Assembly: GCF_900182815.1 (NCBI RefSeq)
Contig: NZ_FXUA01000001.1
Span: forward strand, 124,001-188,000
DNA length: 64,000 bases
Direction: 5' to 3'
DNA from: Algoriphagus winogradskyi
Lineage (GTDB): Bacteria > Bacteroidota > Bacteroidia > Cytophagales > Cyclobacteriaceae
This document shows positions 1,263-14,236 of the stretch, piece by piece (the first letter of the stretch is position 1; each line of letters opens with the position of its first letter). The translations under genes were made by a program, and so were the position numbers. The notes beneath the pieces were generated by a model. The model worked only from the letters and a program-made list of their open reading frames with translations. It was not told where the DNA came from and made no database searches.

Positions 1263-1667
1263 ATGATTGACGAAGATCTCATACTTGAAAATGAAATTGC
1301 CACACGGGTTATTGGCATAGCAATAGATGTCCATCGTCAATTAGGGCCTGGACTTTTAGAGAATGCATATAAGCAAGTTTTAGCCTTTAAACTCCAGAAA
1401 GCTGGTATTTTTGTAGAAGTAGAGAAAAAAATGCCATTAGAAATTGATGAAATTAACTTAGACGTTGGCTACATAATTGATATTTTGGTGGAAAGGAAAT
1501 TAGTTTTGGAATTGAAATCAGTTGATATACTCAACGACGTTCATTTTGCCCAAACGCTTAACTACGTAAAAATCGGAAAATACAAATTGGGTCTGCTTAT
1601 TAACTTTAATGTTTCCCAACTAAAATATGGAATTCAAAGAGTTGCTAATACGAAACCCAGAATATAA
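1263..1667 (+). CDS. GxxExxY family protein (PD-(D/E)xK nuclease-like)
   Basis: A 134-aa member of the GxxExxY family, named for a motif seen here as GLLENAY (residues 30-36). The core D73 ... ELK (E83, K85) fits the PD-(D/E)xK nuclease fold to which this family is assigned. Biochemical function is unknown. The gene sits alone between inverted repeats at 1210-1251 and 1690-1728 and fills the arginase-argS gap, so it behaves like a compact cassette rather than part of the operon. I am sure of the family, not of its activity or whether it moves. Confidence 0.85.
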   Translation: MIDEDLILENEIATRVIGIAIDVHRQLGPGLLENAYKQVLAFKLQKAGIFVEVEKKMPLEIDEINLDVGYIIDILVERKLVLELKSVDILNDVHFAQTLNYVKIGKYKLGLLINFNVSQLKYGIQRVANTKPRI

Positions 1668-6379: not shown

Positions 6380-7273
6380 TCACCCATTGATTACCTCTTC
6401 CTCCAAATTCCTCACATCTACACTCACCTTCATCTCCTGCTCACTACCACTGTACACAATTCCTTTTAAGGGTGTGACATCTGCAAAATCACGCCCTACG
6501 GCAACACGAATGTGCTTATCATTAACCAGAAGGTTATTTGTTGCATCAAACTCTATCCATTCATGGCCCGGAACATAAATAGCAATCCAGGCATGAGATG
6601 CGTCGGCTCCGATCATTTTAGGCTTGCCAGGAGGTGGTAAAGTCTCAAGATACCCACTTACATACCTTGCTGACAATCCAATTGACCTCAAGCATGCTAA
6701 AGAAAAATGTGCAAAATCCTGACACACTCCCTTTTTGTGTTTAAACACTTTCTCAAGCGGGGTACTGATATCAGAAAATCCCGGAGTAAAAGCAAAGTCA
6801 TTGAATATTCTTGTATTCAAATCAAGCATAGCTTCCATTATAGGACGTCCTGGAGTGAAGGATTTTAAGGTATAATCACTTATCCCATCTATGAAGTTTA
6901 CATGTTTTGACTCCAAATAATATTGTCTAACATCCGTAGAAGTCTTTGTGGAATGAAGCAACTCCACCACTTTTTCCCAAGGCATAGTATCAGTAGGTTT
7001 GATTGAAACCCAAGCTGGAGAAGATAGCTCAACAACACTTTTGGAAGTCACTGTGAGATTCTTGTGCGATCGTTCTACTGAAAAATAAAGGTATTTATTT
7101 CCAAAAAAATCTACTCGCTCTATCTCCGTGCTAGGCTTTGGACTGATCTCACAAAAGTATTCTTCAACATTCTGAAAAGGGAGATCAGGCGGAATCTGAA
7201 ACATCAAATTATGACATAGAACCGCTGGGAAATCATAGATATAATTAGTGATATGTGTGACCTTATATTTCAT
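6380..7273 (-). CDS. Transglutaminase-like protein (standalone)
   Basis: Transglutaminase/protease superfamily protein with an N-terminal bacterial-transglutaminase beta region (1-90) and a catalytic core. The Cys-His-Asp triad is visible: GVCQDF (Cys184), ASHAW (His227) and FDATN (Asp243). There is no signal peptide, so it is probably cytoplasmic. It is the last gene of a three-gene minus-strand cluster with the ATP-grasp/alpha-E protein and the TGase-DUF2126 protein, which recur together in many bacteria. The substrate is unknown; a peptidase or transpeptidase acting on the product of the ligases is the inferred role. Confidence 0.88.
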   Translation of the reverse strand: MKYKVTHITNYIYDFPAVLCHNLMFQIPPDLPFQNVEEYFCEISPKPSTEIERVDFFGNKYLYFSVERSHKNLTVTSKSVVELSSPAWVSIKPTDTMPWEKVVELLHSTKTSTDVRQYYLESKHVNFIDGISDYTLKSFTPGRPIMEAMLDLNTRIFNDFAFTPGFSDISTPLEKVFKHKKGVCQDFAHFSLACLRSIGLSARYVSGYLETLPPPGKPKMIGADASHAWIAIYVPGHEWIEFDATNNLLVNDKHIRVAVGRDFADVTPLKGIVYSGSEQEMKVSVDVRNLEEEVING

Positions 7274-7386
7274 GCGTCTAGACTGAATTTCTTATTTTTT
7301 TTGCACTACCATTAACAAACTTCATTTGAGAAAAGCACACATTAATATGTTTAACCTGCAGATTAATACTGGAGTTAGGCTCGATT

Positions 7387-9927
7387 TCATATCTCCGGAA
7401 TAACAGAAGATTGAATCATACTGTACCTGGTATCTGTATGACTAAAATATTTTTCATAAATAGAATCCGAAGTTTCATGCAATAGCCCAATGATTTCATC
7501 CAACAGCACGCGCAGCTCCACAAATTCCTGAGTAACAACATTAGGAATAGATATCACATCAATATCGCATAACCTGATTTTGGTGATAGCTTGAAGTAAC
7601 TTCTTTCGCTCTATGCTAAAAAGCTCCTTTTCATCTTGATTAGGAAGGGTTTTCAAGTGATTATCAATTTCCGACAGCTGGTATATCAATGATCTGGGGT
7701 TATCCTCATGCAAAATCAATAGACTCAAAACACCATGCATTTCCAGATTAGAACGATAGCGATACCTGTAAGTCACCAAACTTTCATTGCAGCGTAGTGT
7801 ATCCTCCATCAACTCTTTGTTTGACTCAGAATCAAAAGACTTGGTTAACATTCCTTTTAGGATCAGACAGTTGTTAGACGCAGACTCTATAAATCTTCCA
7901 ATATTTAGCAAATGCCAAGTCGGCTCTCGGGTCATGTTATCAATATTCAATCCGTAAAAAGCCATTAATTTCACCACCATGTTATCTAAGCTTTGATAAG
8001 CTTGCATTAAGGTGGTGTCGGAATCCCGCATTTTAGTAAGTTCTTCGGAAATATTGTCCAGAATTCTCCACGTATCCAAACTCAATCTATCTCTTACAGC
8101 ATATGCATTGGTAAGAAAAGACTGGATTGAATAGGCCAGGCTTCCAGGTTTCTTTACGTCGTGTACCAAAGCCAGTAACTGAGCCTCTGGATTTTTCAAA
8201 TTCTTTTTAGTCGTAAACCCTGGCATTGTCCCAGTCATGACGGTGAGCGTTTGAAGCAAAGTGCTTAAAACTGGATTCTCATGAACATGAATATCTTCAT
8301 CCGCTTCATTGTATGAAAGAAGCGTCATTCGCATCAAGCGTACCGAATAGGCTGAGCGTTCCAAATACCTTCCTAGCCAAAATAATCGTTCGCCAGTGCG
8401 ACTTGGGAGTACATTTCTTACCAAAGGCTGGATTTTAATCGCTTTGGCAACTGGCGCAGGTACTTCTTTTCCTTTACCTAAAACCCAAGTATCCTTGCTG
8501 ATTCCTCCTGTTTGATTTGAAACCAAAAAAGCCCCCTTCTCAGGAGAACTCCTCGATAAGCCACCAGGCATCACTTTATAGTTTTTATTTTCAGTGTCAG
8601 CAACTACATAACTTCGAAATACAGCATTTCTAGCTACCAGCTTATTGTTAATCCAAGAAGGTGTGGTAGAAAAATCAACCATTTCCTGCCCCACAAACAT
8701 GTAAGGGCTACTTCTGATTTCCCGTTTTAAGTTTTCTATTTCCACCTTGCTAAGGTTACCACCAAAAACAGATTTCTTGTGTGTACCTCGATAGATATTT
8801 CGAATCACTAAAGATTCAATATGCTCAAACACATATTTCATCTCAGTTGGCTGACCGCACCACCAAGTTGCAACTGAAGGCAAAATCAAATCCTGCCCCA
8901 GCAAATGCCTACTAATTTTCGGCAAGAATGCCATTAAGCCAGGATTCTCTAATACCCTGCATCCTAATGGATTAATCACCAATACTTTTCGCTGTCGCAC
9001 GGCCTCCATCAATCCTACTACTCCCAAGTGAGAGTCATTTTTCAACTCCAGAGGATCACAAAAAACATCATCAACTCTCCTGATAATTACATCTACTTTC
9101 TCTAGGCCTTTAATAGTCTTCAGCCACACGTAACCATCACTTACGGTGAGGTCTTCTCCAAAAGCAAGGGTAAATCCCATAAAGGAAGAAATGTAGGCAT
9201 GCTCAAAAAAGGTCTCGTTAGTAGGGCCGGGCGAAAGCAAAACTACCCTAGGGTTTTCCTTATTGTTAGTAGTTAAATTACTTAGTGTGTTTTTGAAGGT
9301 TTGATAATAGGAGGTAATTTTACGGGCATGATTTTCACGGATTAGATCAGGAAAAACCCGTGTCATTGCTGCTCTATTTTCAAAAGTATATCCAGAACCA
9401 GAAGGAGCATCTGTTCTATCGTGAAGCACCCACATTTTGCCATTTGGACCACGAGCTAGATCGGAAGAGTACTGGATAAGTTGCTGCTCACCATCTAACT
9501 TGATGTTATGCGCTTGTCGCAAAAAACCTCCGTGATTATAGATCAATTCAAAAGGAATACGCCCCTCCTTTATCAAGGTCTGATCTCCATATAAATCACT
9601 TAAAATCAGATTCAAAAGTTCTGATCTCTGAAGTAAGCCTTTCTCTATTCCTTCCCACTCTTCATTACTGAATACCATAGGAACAGGATCCAACATCCAC
9701 GGTCTATTCATCCCATTGGGATCACCATAGACATTGTAAGTCACGCCATTTTCACGTAATTGACGACCAACCTCCTCATGAAATTGCCCCATACGTTCAG
9801 TTCCTATCTGATCGTAATATTTGGCAATTTTCTCCCAATGAGGATGGATTTTACCTTGGTCGGTTGCCATTTCATCCAAAAATGGCGCATTATTGAACAT
9901 TTTGTCAATAAGATAAGACTCAATCAT
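7387..9927 (-). CDS. Circularly permuted ATP-grasp (type 2) fused to alpha-E domain
   Basis: An 846-aa fusion. Residues about 70-485 form the circularly permuted ATP-grasp type 2 domain (landmarks DLYGDQTLI near 111, DRTDAPSGSGYTFENR near 170-185, IRRVDD near 282, GLSRSSPEKGAFLVSNQTGG near 456-475). From about 505 to the end is an alpha-E domain, opening with LPSRTGERLFWLGRYLERS. In many bacteria these are two separate adjacent genes. ATP-grasp enzymes join a carboxylate to an amine at the cost of ATP, so a peptide or amide ligase is inferred; substrates are unknown. No signal peptide. It lies between the two transglutaminase genes, 113 nt and about 40 nt away. Confidence 0.9.
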   Translation of the reverse strand: MIESYLIDKMFNNAPFLDEMATDQGKIHPHWEKIAKYYDQIGTERMGQFHEEVGRQLRENGVTYNVYGDPNGMNRPWMLDPVPMVFSNEEWEGIEKGLLQRSELLNLILSDLYGDQTLIKEGRIPFELIYNHGGFLRQAHNIKLDGEQQLIQYSSDLARGPNGKMWVLHDRTDAPSGSGYTFENRAAMTRVFPDLIRENHARKITSYYQTFKNTLSNLTTNNKENPRVVLLSPGPTNETFFEHAYISSFMGFTLAFGEDLTVSDGYVWLKTIKGLEKVDVIIRRVDDVFCDPLELKNDSHLGVVGLMEAVRQRKVLVINPLGCRVLENPGLMAFLPKISRHLLGQDLILPSVATWWCGQPTEMKYVFEHIESLVIRNIYRGTHKKSVFGGNLSKVEIENLKREIRSSPYMFVGQEMVDFSTTPSWINNKLVARNAVFRSYVVADTENKNYKVMPGGLSRSSPEKGAFLVSNQTGGISKDTWVLGKGKEVPAPVAKAIKIQPLVRNVLPSRTGERLFWLGRYLERSAYSVRLMRMTLLSYNEADEDIHVHENPVLSTLLQTLTVMTGTMPGFTTKKNLKNPEAQLLALVHDVKKPGSLAYSIQSFLTNAYAVRDRLSLDTWRILDNISEELTKMRDSDTTLMQAYQSLDNMVVKLMAFYGLNIDNMTREPTWHLLNIGRFIESASNNCLILKGMLTKSFDSESNKELMEDTLRCNESLVTYRYRYRSNLEMHGVLSLLILHEDNPRSLIYQLSEIDNHLKTLPNQDEKELFSIERKKLLQAITKIRLCDIDVISIPNVVTQEFVELRVLLDEIIGLLHETSDSIYEKYFSHTDTRYSMIQSSVIPEI

Positions 9928-9967
9928 ATCGCAAAAATGAACTTATTGCAGGTGAAATAATAAACAA

Positions 9968-12900
9968 TTATCGTTTTTTATACCGCCTGAGATCCATAGT
10001 ATAGGGAAATTCAGGATTAATAATCTCAGCAGTCGCTTCATAGTGTCTTTGGCCTTCTGATTTAGTAATGTAACGACCCGATTTATGGTCTTCTTGTACA
10101 GCAGTCTTTGCTTCATTTGGTGTAGGCGTAATTGTATGGCCAAAATCGAAGAACCGGGAAATTCTCCGCGCTTCAGCCTCGTTGCTGTTAATCGGGAAAT
10201 TATCATAACTCCTGCCTCCTGGATGCACTACATGATACTGGCAGGCTGCCACAGATTTCTTTGTCCAAGTATCATACAAGTCAATCACTAATGGAGTATC
10301 AATCCCTATTGTAGGGTGCAACGCAGAAAAAGGCTGCCAAGCCCGATAGCGGATTCCCGCTACAAACTCGCCTTGCACTCCCGTATTTTTCAGTGGAATT
10401 CTATATCCATTACAAAGCAAATGATATCTGGAATCAGTCAAGCCTGTGATTTTGACTTGTAACCTTTCCAATGAAGAATCTACATATCGAGCTGTTCCGG
10501 AGCTCGACATCTCCTCTCCCAACACATGCCAAGGCTCGATCGCCATCTTCATATCTATATGAATATCATCCGATTGAAGCTCTCCAATAAAAGGAAAACG
10601 GAAGGAGAAGAATGGGTCAAACCAAGCAATATCAAAATCATAACCAGCCACTTTTAGATCATTGACCACTTCCAGCATGTCCTTTTCACAATAGTGTGGA
10701 AGCAAGAATTTGTCATGCAATGAAGTCCCCCATCGCACGAGTTTGTGATCGTATGGCTGTTTCCAAAACCAGCTCATCAAGGCCCGGATTAACAGCAACT
10801 GCACCATGCTCATCCGATAATGCGGCGGCATATCAAAGCCTCTGAATTCCAAAATACCCAAGCGACCACTACTGGAATCGGGAGAATAAAGCTTGTCAAT
10901 GCAAAACTCAGCTCGATGTGTATTTCCGGTAATATCAACCAGCAGGTTTCTGAAAATCCGATCTACCATCCAGAATGGGATCTCATTTTCAGTACCATTG
11001 GGAACTTGCTGGAAAGCCAATTCCAACTCATAAAGCATATCATCTCGTCCTTCATCTACTCTTGGAGCCTGACTAGTTGGACCAATAAATTGAGTAGAAA
11101 ATAAATAGGATAATGCAGGGTGATGTTGCCAATACGTGATAAAACTCTTCAACACATCAGGCCTTCTCAGCAAAGGACTGTTTTCAGGCGAGGAACCTCC
11201 AAGCGTAATGTGATTTCCCCCACCTGTGCCGGTATGCTTTCCATCTACATTGAATTTTTCAGAAATGAGACGGGATTCACGGGCTTTTTCATAAAGCACT
11301 TCGTAATTATGTGTCACCTCTTTCCAGCTTTTTGCAGGCTGTACATTCACTTCAATTACCCCAGGATCTGGAGTAATCATCATTTTTTCTATACGCTTAT
11401 CCGAAGGAGGATCGTATCCTTCGATTAGAATCGGAACTTTGAGCTTCTGAGCGGCCCTTTCTATCGCATTCACCAAATCCAGGTAATGCTCTAGGTAAGA
11501 TACAGGAGGTAAGAAAACGAAAAGCTTTCCCTCTCTAACTTCCGCCACCAAAGTCGTCTTGAAAATCCGCTTGGAATTGATAGGCTTAAGTTTGGCCGCT
11601 TTAGAACGTGTTTTGGAAGGAAGTGCACCGACTTCAGCAAACAAATCATTCTGTGGCTTGATTGGCTCATCTTTTGGATCCGTATATTCAATGGAGTCCA
11701 AGGGCAATCTCAAACCTGCAGGAGAATTCCCTGGTACTAGATAAAGTTCTTTAGAACGGAATTTCCAGCGACAACTTTGCCATCTATTTTGATCATATTC
11801 CCACTCCAATGGAATCGAATAGCCCACAGGCTTTCCCAGTCCTTTTTTGAGAAGCTTGGCTAACTTTTGCCGCTCCAAAGAAGATTTGAGGTTATATTTT
11901 GCAGGGTTGATATTCACAGGGACTTTTCCCTCCTGCCAGATAAAGTAAAAAGGGTCTTCGTATAAAGGAGTAATATTGAGCGGATCTACATTTAGTTCTT
12001 TGACCAGATTATTAATGAAAGTCTTTGACTTTTTGTGGGTCAGCTTGTAATCCTTTGACAAATCAGCCATCAACGCATCATTTTTCCACATCGGAATACC
12101 ATCCTTTCGCCAGAAACAAGCTAATTTCCACCTAGGCAAAGGCTCTCCGGGATACCATTTTCCTTGACCATATTGCATCAAAGCTCCGTTACCAAACTCT
12201 CCTTTTAGCTTGTGAAAAAGTATATTGGATAAACTCCGCTTGTGTTCGCCATCAGCGTCTGTATTCCATTCAGGAGCATCCTGATTATCTACAGACACAA
12301 AAGTAGGCTCACCTCCCATGGTCAGCCGCACGTCATTTGCTTCTAAATCCTCATCCACCTTATCTCCTACTGACAGTATTTTTTGCCACTGCTCTTCAGA
12401 ATAAGGTTTAGTCACCCGAGGTGTTTCTTCTATTCGAGTCACTTCATTTTTGAAGAAAAACTCAGTCTCCGCAGGTTCAGCCATGCCTGTAATAGGTGCT
12501 GCATCCTGAGGACTTGGTGTACAAGCCAATGGTATATGCCCCTCCCCTGCAAACAATCCAGAAGTGGAATCCAAGCCTATCCAGCCAGCTCCCGGCACAT
12601 AAACTTCCGTCCAAGCATGCAAATCGGTAAAATCCTCTTCCGGACCAGATGGACCATCCAATGATTTCTCATCCGATTTCAACTGAACTAAGTAACCAGA
12701 AGCAAATCTTGATGCCAATCCCACGTGTCGCAAAACCTGTACAAATAACCATGCAAAATCACGGCAAGAGCCTGATCCCAAAGTCAATGATTCTTCACAA
12801 GATTGCACACCTGGCTCCATTCGCACATTATAGCGCAATTCCTGGTTGATCATAGTGTTGATCGCTACCAGATAATCCACCGTGATGATATCCTTCGTCA

Positions 12901-13312
12901 TCAAAGTTTTGGCCCTATCTACCAATTTCATCAAAAGCGGGTCCGATTCTTTGATCTCCAAATATGGGCCCAGCTGCTTCTTTACACTCTCATCGTACTC
13001 AAATGGAAACTTATCAGCATAATCTTCCACAAAAAAATCAAAGGGATTTATCACCACCATATCAGCGATTACTTCCACATCAATTTCAAAATATTTGACC
13101 TTTTCAGGAAAAACAATCCTAGCCAAGTAATTGCCAAAAGGATCCTGCTGCCAATTGATAAAGTGATTTTCTGGTTTGATATTCAAAGAATAACCTTTGA
13201 TATGTGTGCGTGAGTGCGGAGCAGGTCGCAAACGGATCACCTGAGGCCCCAAACTTATATTCTTTTCGTATTCGTACTTGGTATAATGCCGTATGGCAAC
13301 TTTGATAGACAT
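9968..13312 (-). CDS. Transglutaminase-DUF2126 fusion protein
   Basis: A 1114-aa cytoplasmic protein. The N-terminal third is a transglutaminase with beta region and catalytic triad SGSCRDF (Cys183), DLHAW (His232) and LDSTS (Asp248). From about residue 325 a DUF2126 domain begins at RLTMGGEPTFVS; this family has been related to glutamine-synthetase-like amidoligases and includes the GGGNHITLGG segment. It is the first gene of the minus-strand cluster, transcribed toward the ATP-grasp/alpha-E and second transglutaminase genes. The combination of two ligase types with two transglutaminases suggests synthesis and trimming or transfer of a peptide tag. That reading is inference; no substrate is encoded nearby. 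Confidence 0.9.
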   Translation of the reverse strand: MSIKVAIRHYTKYEYEKNISLGPQVIRLRPAPHSRTHIKGYSLNIKPENHFINWQQDPFGNYLARIVFPEKVKYFEIDVEVIADMVVINPFDFFVEDYADKFPFEYDESVKKQLGPYLEIKESDPLLMKLVDRAKTLMTKDIITVDYLVAINTMINQELRYNVRMEPGVQSCEESLTLGSGSCRDFAWLFVQVLRHVGLASRFASGYLVQLKSDEKSLDGPSGPEEDFTDLHAWTEVYVPGAGWIGLDSTSGLFAGEGHIPLACTPSPQDAAPITGMAEPAETEFFFKNEVTRIEETPRVTKPYSEEQWQKILSVGDKVDEDLEANDVRLTMGGEPTFVSVDNQDAPEWNTDADGEHKRSLSNILFHKLKGEFGNGALMQYGQGKWYPGEPLPRWKLACFWRKDGIPMWKNDALMADLSKDYKLTHKKSKTFINNLVKELNVDPLNITPLYEDPFYFIWQEGKVPVNINPAKYNLKSSLERQKLAKLLKKGLGKPVGYSIPLEWEYDQNRWQSCRWKFRSKELYLVPGNSPAGLRLPLDSIEYTDPKDEPIKPQNDLFAEVGALPSKTRSKAAKLKPINSKRIFKTTLVAEVREGKLFVFLPPVSYLEHYLDLVNAIERAAQKLKVPILIEGYDPPSDKRIEKMMITPDPGVIEVNVQPAKSWKEVTHNYEVLYEKARESRLISEKFNVDGKHTGTGGGNHITLGGSSPENSPLLRRPDVLKSFITYWQHHPALSYLFSTQFIGPTSQAPRVDEGRDDMLYELELAFQQVPNGTENEIPFWMVDRIFRNLLVDITGNTHRAEFCIDKLYSPDSSSGRLGILEFRGFDMPPHYRMSMVQLLLIRALMSWFWKQPYDHKLVRWGTSLHDKFLLPHYCEKDMLEVVNDLKVAGYDFDIAWFDPFFSFRFPFIGELQSDDIHIDMKMAIEPWHVLGEEMSSSGTARYVDSSLERLQVKITGLTDSRYHLLCNGYRIPLKNTGVQGEFVAGIRYRAWQPFSALHPTIGIDTPLVIDLYDTWTKKSVAACQYHVVHPGGRSYDNFPINSNEAEARRISRFFDFGHTITPTPNEAKTAVQEDHKSGRYITKSEGQRHYEATAEIINPEFPYTMDLRRYKKR

Positions 13313-13561: not shown

Positions 13562-14236
13562 ATGAAAAAAAACAACCCGAAAACTCTTGTCATTGATATT
13601 GGCGGTTCTAATGTCAAAATACTTGCAACAGGTGCTGCAGAGCGCATAAAAATTCCTTCAGGCTCAGATTTTTCTCCTGAACAAATGGTGGAACTGGTTA
13701 AAGAAAACGCTTCAGAATGGGAATACGACAGGATCACAATGGGTTTTCCGGGAGTAGTCAAAGAAAACAAGATAGTATCCGAGCCAGTTAACCTTGGAGA
13801 GGGATGGAATAAATTTGACTTTCAGGCTGCATTTAACTGCCCTATTAAATTTATAAATGATGCAGCCATGCAGGCTCTTGGTAGTTACGAAGGTAAAAAG
13901 TTGCTCTTCTTAGGCTTCGGAACTGGATTAGGCACCGCCATGGTCATTCACAATACGATATTACCCTTAGAAGGCGGGCATCTTCCTTTCAAGAAAAAGA
14001 CCTTCGAAGAATATGTTGGAAAGGAGTATCTGACGAAGAGCGGATCTAAACGATGGGAGAAAAACGTGCTAAAAACCGTGGAATATTTCAGAGCAGCATT
14101 TCAACCTGATGACGTATTATTAGGCGGGGGAAATTCAAAATTGTTAACAACAATTCCTGAGGGATGTAGATTGGGTACAAATGAAAATGCCTTCAAAGGC
14201 GGTTTCAAGTTCTGGGAAGAGGATTTTAAGTTGTAA
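13562..14236 (+). CDS. ROK-family kinase, polyphosphate-glucokinase-like
   Basis: Small ROK sugar kinase. The ATP/polyphosphate phosphate-binding loop DIGGSNVK lies at residues 12-19, a second loop GFGTGLGTAM near 118, and GGHLPF and EEYVG near 140-152 resemble polyphosphate glucokinases. The C-terminus (VLLGGGNSKLL and RLGTNENAFKGGFKFW) is also the PPGK pattern. The zinc-binding CxCGxxGC motif of repressor-type ROK proteins is absent, and there is no HTH domain. It probably phosphorylates glucose, with polyphosphate and/or ATP as donor. It is monocistronic and divergent from the transglutaminase cluster. Confidence 0.8.
   Translation: MKKNNPKTLVIDIGGSNVKILATGAAERIKIPSGSDFSPEQMVELVKENASEWEYDRITMGFPGVVKENKIVSEPVNLGEGWNKFDFQAAFNCPIKFINDAAMQALGSYEGKKLLFLGFGTGLGTAMVIHNTILPLEGGHLPFKKKTFEEYVGKEYLTKSGSKRWEKNVLKTVEYFRAAFQPDDVLLGGGNSKLLTTIPEGCRLGTNENAFKGGFKFWEEDFKL

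What the first reader, a model, noticed from the sequence alone, without database searches (positions are those of the whole stretch)
6380..13312. Three-gene transglutaminase / ATP-grasp-alpha-E / transglutaminase-DUF2126 cluster
Two ATP-consuming amide-bond-forming domains (permuted ATP-grasp, and DUF2126 related to glutamine-synthetase-like amidoligases) sit with two transglutaminases whose catalytic Cys-His-Asp triads are all intact. Comparative genomics has predicted that such sets make or attach peptide tags, but I know of no proven substrate or product. There is no precursor peptide gene beside it here. This is the strongest candidate for an uncharacterised biochemical system in the window.
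Basis: partly seen in the sequence, partly recalled or inferred. Interest (0 to 1): 0.7.

Follow-up and report, generated by a model that had tools for sequence, protein, structure and literature searches.

The report
Anbu-replacing transglutaminase–ligase gene module
Three neighbouring genes form an enzyme module that, in one bacterial genus, is found only in genomes that lack the proteasome-like protein Anbu; it likely works with a separate ligase gene pair elsewhere in the genome to build and trim a still unknown amide-linked molecule, and one of its three proteins is predicted to be a catalytically dead ligase.

Summary
DUF2126 models as a glutamine-synthetase-like fold. Two results change the picture. 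(1) The ATP-grasp half of the fusion protein (F) lacks the predicted Mg2+ motif E-x-N and a conserved Gly-rich loop: 0 of 54 fusions keep E-x-N, against 48 of 49 stand-alone relatives (G; the exception is a cut-off fusion). F is probably a pseudo-ligase. The intact ATP-grasp/Alpha-E pair (G–E) lies elsewhere in the genome. (2) Of 72 genomes of this genus, 51 have stand-alone Alpha-E: 33 with Anbu, 18 with DUF2126+F, none with both, none with neither. In all 18, Anbu is missing from the G–E site that carries it in sister species. Two trees force at least two switches; a third suggests transfer of the module. Best reading: an exchangeable partner module of the predicted Anbu-type amide-ligation system, likely replacing Anbu. 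Substrate and product are unknown. The exclusion does not hold across the phylum: 5 of 11 DUF2126 genomes also have Anbu.

The parts
9968..13312 (-). TG-DUF2126 protein (D), 1114 aa: N-terminal transglutaminase plus glutamine-synthetase-like ligase domain
   Evidence: model m79471620b57d; PDB comparisons
12569..12766 (-). stretch with the D transglutaminase triad: Cys183, His232, Asp248
   Evidence: Cys 90/90, His and Asp 89/90 (one gap row)
9986..12475 (-). DUF2126 domain (residues 280-1109)
7387..9927 (-). ATP-grasp/Alpha-E fusion (F), 846 aa, predicted pseudo-ligase
8548..9681 (-). circularly permuted ATP-grasp region of F (residues 83-460)
   Evidence: PF14403, PF04174
9412..9420 (-). His170-Asp171-Arg172 in F, where intact relatives have Glu-x-Asn
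   Evidence: Alignment of 54 F and 49 G proteins; His-Asp-Arg in 18 of 18 genus copies
7444..8409 (-). Alpha-E domain of F (residues 507-828), lacking the Arg-Glu-Asn and a later Arg that are conserved in stand-alone Alpha-E
   Evidence: PF04168; alignment
6380..7273 (-). stand-alone transglutaminase (T), 297 aa, triad intact
   Evidence: 3isr E 3e-13

Best explanation
The three genes are a partner module (D-F-T) that likely works with an ATP-grasp/Alpha-E gene pair (G-E) lying elsewhere in the same genome; in this genus the module occurs only in genomes without Anbu, so it likely replaces Anbu in a system predicted to make and trim an amide-linked product. Shown: the gene set, the intact TG triads, loss of the E-x-N motif and of the conserved Gly-rich loop in F, both motifs intact in G at all 48 genus G-E loci read, strict complementarity with Anbu among the 51 Alpha-E genomes of the genus, and absence of Anbu from the G-E site itself in all 18 DUF2126 genomes. 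Inferred from families: G (with E) activates a carboxylate as acyl phosphate and joins it to an amine, as glutathionylspermidine and glutathione synthetases do. D's glutamine-synthetase-like domain makes or extends a second amide bond. F no longer uses ATP and serves as a scaffold or substrate-handing partner of D and/or G. The thiol (Cys-His-Asp) TG domains hydrolyse or transfer the amide, a role comparable to the amidase half of glutathionylspermidine synthetase/amidase, and take over the bond-cleaving role that Anbu is thought to play. Substrates and product are unknown.
For: F degraded: 0 of 54 F keep E-x-N (53 have neither residue, 1 has the Glu only), against 48 of 49 G, the exception being a fusion cut off by a contig end. 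The GGYG loop is invariant or nearly so in G and not conserved in F. In the genus 18 of 18 F read His-Asp-Arg and 48 of 48 G loci keep both motifs. F and G are split by a single branch, SH-aLRT 100. F occurs only with D: 8 of 11 D+ and 0 of 236 D- phylum genomes, all 8 with a second Alpha-E. D occurs only with stand-alone Alpha-E: 11 of 11, against 84 of 236 D- genomes; Anbu likewise 16 of 16. Genus: 51 Alpha-E genomes = 33 Anbu + 18 D, overlap 0. Orthologous site: 30 of 30 Anbu loci read G-E-Anbu-T (30 of the 33 Anbu genomes read); 18 of 18 D+ loci lack Anbu, 5 of them still with T. At least 2 switches are forced on the MetG and G+E trees; the D of G314 groups with the window's D although its MetG and G-E group with the Anbu-rich clade. 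A site without D, F, T and ROK between SUI1 and a beta-lactamase-like gene in sister G111. Adjacent G-E-D-F-T runs in other phyla. GS-like fold of DUF2126.
Against: Across the phylum 5 of 11 D+ genomes also have Anbu, 2 of them with F, and 6 of 91 loci carry both F and Anbu (F versus Anbu over the 91 loci, Fisher p 0.05), so replacement is not universal. Only 2-3 independent switches support it in the genus. Three D+ genomes of the phylum (G064, G158, G162) have no F. Foldseek gave only weak glutamine-synthetase scores and profile comparison of DUF2126 with a glutamine synthetase found nothing, so its active-site residues are not mapped. No biochemistry on D, F or Alpha-E was seen; the only activity seen in passages is phosphate release from ATP by one Anbu-operon ATP-grasp protein, and in the same paper no Anbu peptidase activity and no specific complex of the operon's proteins was detected (PMC6376114).
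Confidence: 0.5

Rival explanations
1. A complete, self-contained peptide-ligation or tagging system: F and D are both active ligases and the transglutaminases attach or remove the tag.
For: F and T directly follow D in 39 of 91 loci; fold matches to ATP-grasp ligases and glutamine synthetase.
Against: E-x-N absent from all 54 F and the Gly-rich loop not conserved; D never found without stand-alone Alpha-E in the 247 phylum and 72 genus genomes.
Confidence: 0.18
2. A catabolic or proteolytic unit: the transglutaminase-like proteins are cysteine amidases that break down peptides or protein amides for nitrogen, and the ligase domains are accessory.
For: TG triads intact; the closest solved TG is titled a putative cysteine protease (3isr); passages link Anbu to nitrogen limitation in Pseudomonas putida and the domains to urea genes in marine metagenomes.
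Against: TG-DUF2126 is highly conserved (58% mean column identity over 44 sequences) and has a ligase-type fold; G keeps the examined ATP-grasp motifs.
Confidence: 0.14
3. A biosynthetic cluster for a small diffusible pseudopeptide, such as an amine-capped peptide, rather than a housekeeping conjugation system.
Against: Among ORFs of 70 aa or more, the only families found in more than 8 of the 91 loci are D, ATP-grasp, TG, Alpha-E and Anbu; no tailoring enzyme or exporter is among them. Shorter ORFs were not compared, so a small precursor in other genomes is not excluded.
Confidence: 0.1
4. F is not dead but has changed chemistry, with the conserved Arg (47 of 54 at the Asn site) giving a new, ATP-independent or differently metallated activity.
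For: The Arg is conserved rather than random; many other family residues are kept.
Against: The Glu site is unconstrained in F and the Gly-rich loop is variable.
Confidence: 0.08

Closest known systems
Anbu operon (ATP-grasp, Alpha-E, transglutaminase, Anbu peptidase)
   Same: The same G-E core at the orthologous site; sister species carry G-E-Anbu-T there. Transglutaminases present in the genome.
   Different: No Anbu in this genome by profile search; instead D-F-T, with a second, degraded ATP-grasp/Alpha-E copy fused as F.
Predicted peptide-tagging system with ATP-grasp, GS-like ligase, Ntn peptidase and Alpha-E (Iyer et al. 2009; recalled, not held)
   Same: Same domain families.
   Different: Ntn (Anbu) peptidase absent; one of the two ATP-grasp copies predicted inactive; split over separate loci.
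Glutathionylspermidine synthetase/amidase and YgiC/YjfC (peptide-spermidine ligases; only a paper title in a reference list seen)
   Different: About 9-13% identity; here the thiol enzyme is a TG fused to a GS-like ligase, and the ATP-grasp copy in the cluster has lost its metal motif.
3n6x, putative glutathionylspermidine synthase of Methylobacillus flagellatus
   Different: 3n6x keeps E-x-N and GGYG (alignment), so it is G-type, not F-type.
RloABC of Pseudomonas aeruginosa (PMC12239564, abstract and passages)
   Same: ATP-grasp, transglutaminase-like and protease genes together.
   Different: Its TG is described as inactive and membrane-bound; the ATP-grasp resembles RimK; the protease is a retropepsin; the terms DUF2126 and alpha-E do not occur in the text.

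Membership tests
Anbu operon | Ntn-hydrolase Anbu gene | tested here: not met
   0 matches in own genome with the Anbu profile; absent from the orthologous G-E site
Anbu operon | intact ATP-grasp next to Alpha-E | tested here: met
   Pair on contig C6, L005 6680-8122 and 8138-9124; LEDN and GGYG present
Anbu operon | transglutaminase gene in the same operon | tested here: not met
   None beside G-E in own genome; TGs are in the window and alone on C12. 5 of 18 DUF2126 genomes of the genus do keep T beside G-E
Active circularly permuted ATP-grasp ligase (F) | Glu-x-Asn metal motif and Gly-rich nucleotide loop | tested here: not met
   0 of 54 F with E-x-N; loop not conserved. The role of these residues is recalled from glutathionylspermidine and glutathione synthetases
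Active circularly permuted ATP-grasp ligase (G, other locus) | Glu-x-Asn metal motif and Gly-rich nucleotide loop | tested here: met
   48 of 49, the exception a truncated F; 48 of 48 genus loci
Glutamine-synthetase-like amidoligase (DUF2126) | fold | tested here: met
Glutamine-synthetase-like amidoligase (DUF2126) | catalytic Glu/His/Arg residues in equivalent places | tested here: inconclusive
   E335, E654, N656, H701, E822 and R824 are invariant and look right by eye; profile comparison with one glutamine synthetase found no match
Transglutaminase-like superfamily | Cys-His-Asp triad | tested here: met
Iyer-type peptide-tagging system | a peptide is made and attached to a target | not testable with these tools
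   Needs biochemistry

The most novel reading that the evidence does not exclude
D-F-T is a transferable cassette that replaces the proteasome relative Anbu on a shared ATP-grasp/Alpha-E ligase core, built around a pseudo-synthetase made from a copied and decayed core; the same amide-conjugate pathway thus has two interchangeable back ends, an Ntn hydrolase or a transglutaminase-glutamine-synthetase-like enzyme.
Probability: 0.5. Interest if true: 0.78.

Novelty: new variant of a known kind. Interest (0 to 1): 0.62.

Why it matters
Anbu has been proposed as an early relative or precursor of the proteasome (abstracts and passages), yet its job is unknown and the one paper whose assays I saw in passages detected no peptidase activity. 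A genus in which a ligase-transglutaminase cassette occurs exactly where Anbu is missing, after at least two switches, gives a natural complementation experiment: whatever the cassette can do, Anbu probably did or made unnecessary. It also says which of the many domains are likely alive (G, D and the TGs) and which is likely a scaffold (F), so reconstitution in vitro can be aimed at the right proteins, including two genes that lie outside the cluster.
Full report
OBSERVATION. The three genes are real and lie on the minus strand in the order D (TG-DUF2126, 9968-13312), F (ATP-grasp/Alpha-E, 7387-9927), T (transglutaminase, 6380-7273), 40 and 113 bp apart. Where D and F are neighbours in other loci the gap runs from -29 to 290 bp (43 gaps). 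NCBIfam names none of the three. Flanking genes (Usp, SUI1 and ROK by Pfam; arginase family, ArgS and MnmA by eye) point the other way and look unrelated. No evident precursor peptide gene lies in the gaps.

SURROUNDINGS IN THE GENOME. The genome has one DUF2126, two Alpha-E and three matches to the bacterial TG N-domain, the third below the curated cut-off. The second Alpha-E is a stand-alone gene directly after a stand-alone ATP-grasp gene (G, 480 aa; E, 328 aa; L005). The third TG is alone on another contig (L009). The only PF00227 match is HslV-like, and a profile made from Anbu proteins finds none.

NEIGHBOURHOODS. In 91 loci, F and T follow D directly in 39; a G-E pair directly precedes D in the same direction in 14 and divergently in 11. 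Eleven loci of Proteobacteria, Desulfobacterota-type, Verrucomicrobia and Planctomycetes records have an unbroken G-E-D-F-T run (L051, L057, L063, L066, L070, L071, L074, L086, L090, L102, L109). Of 68 loci with at least 7 kb on both sides, 45 carry F, 36 carry G and 14 carry Anbu. The families found in more than 8 of the 91 loci are D, ATP-grasp, TG, Alpha-E and Anbu only (ORFs of 70 aa or more). Rarer neighbours include hydrolases: a zinc metallopeptidase family (PF15887; six loci) and an AstE/AspA-like family (three loci).

CO-OCCURRENCE. In 247 phylum genomes: DUF2126 in 11, Alpha-E in 96 at E 0.001 or 95 over the cut-off, Anbu in 16. All 11 and all 16 are Alpha-E positive. Fused Alpha-E is in 8, all DUF2126 positive and all with a second Alpha-E; 3 DUF2126 genomes have no F. 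Anbu is in 5 of 11 DUF2126 genomes (2 of the 8 with F), so there is no general exclusion.

THE GENUS. In 72 genomes of the genus (50 of high quality): DUF2126 in 18, Anbu in 33, Alpha-E in 51. The 51 are exactly the 18 plus the 33, with no overlap; each of the 18 has two Alpha-E matches, one of them fused. The other 21 genomes have none of the three. I read the G-E site in all 18 DUF2126 genomes and in 30 of the 33 Anbu genomes. All 30 read G-E-Anbu-T followed by the same neighbour gene. None of the 18 has Anbu there. Five (G314, G280, G270, G267, G247) keep T, with the E and T matches now about 138-279 bp apart, and in thirteen no T is found there either. On a MetG tree (37 loci) and a G+E tree (48 loci) the DUF2126 genomes fall in two or three places, and well-supported branches force at least two changes. 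The D of G314 groups with the window's D (SH-aLRT 97, quick tree with long outgroup branches), while its MetG and G-E group with G280 inside the Anbu-rich clade; this suggests transfer of the module, with Anbu lost before or after. In sister G111 the stretch from SUI1 to the beta-lactamase-like gene is about 0.8 kb and holds no D, F, T or ROK; in G076 and G194 the left-hand genes are conserved but the right-hand neighbour was not found in the fetched 18 kb.

MECHANISM. I commit to this: G (with E) forms an amide bond through an acyl phosphate; D adds or remodels a second amide; F is a non-catalytic partner of D and/or G; TG domains cleave or transfer the amide as thiol amidases and take over from Anbu. 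The first part rests on family chemistry (ATP-grasp enzymes), on phosphate release by one Anbu-operon ATP-grasp protein (PMC6376114, passages) and, by a title in a reference list only, on peptide-spermidine ligase activity of YgiC/YjfC. Substrates are unknown; an amine or polyamine partner is an attractive but untested guess. Links to nitrogen limitation in Pseudomonas putida and to urea genes are circumstantial, and a passage of PMC5666114 says that expression of the operon does not change under various other conditions.

NOVELTY AND LIMITS. The idea of a peptide-ligation or tagging system with these domains is old (Iyer et al. 2009, recalled; restated in PMC5666114 and PMC6376114 passages). 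What I did not see in any paper searched is the decay of F and the Anbu/DUF2126 replacement. Genus exclusion rests on 2-3 independent events, however many genomes show it, and the phylum shows co-existence. No experiment supports any catalytic step of D, F or T here.

Noticed in passing
window 13562-14236: Short ROK/polyphosphate-glucokinase-like gene (224 aa, below NCBIfam cut-offs) divergent from D; a match lies beside D in 12 of 18 genus copies, and none is found at the corresponding site of sister G111.
   Followed up: partly
window 1263-1667: 134 aa ORF that looks by eye like a GxxExxY protein, between an arginase-like gene and argS; present in sister G194 but not found in the fetched stretches of G076 and G111.
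   Followed up: no
L060 16757-17698 and L072: Pairs of AstE/AspA-like hydrolase genes near G-E; with the PF15887 peptidase in six other loci they may be further exchangeable hydrolases of this system.
   Followed up: no
L034, L039, L046, L048: These Methylococcales-type loci combine D, F, T and Anbu; three of them have a gene of a citrate synthase family (PF00285, one member checked) between D and F, and three a weakly ParA/CbiA-like gene.
   Followed up: no
L041: A record titled Helicobacter pylori MAG carries D (57% identical), F and T; the title is probably a wrong label.
   Followed up: no
L009 7492-10910: Two very similar tandem proteins (510 and 512 aa, thioredoxin-like C-terminus by eye) beside the lone third transglutaminase.
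   Followed up: no
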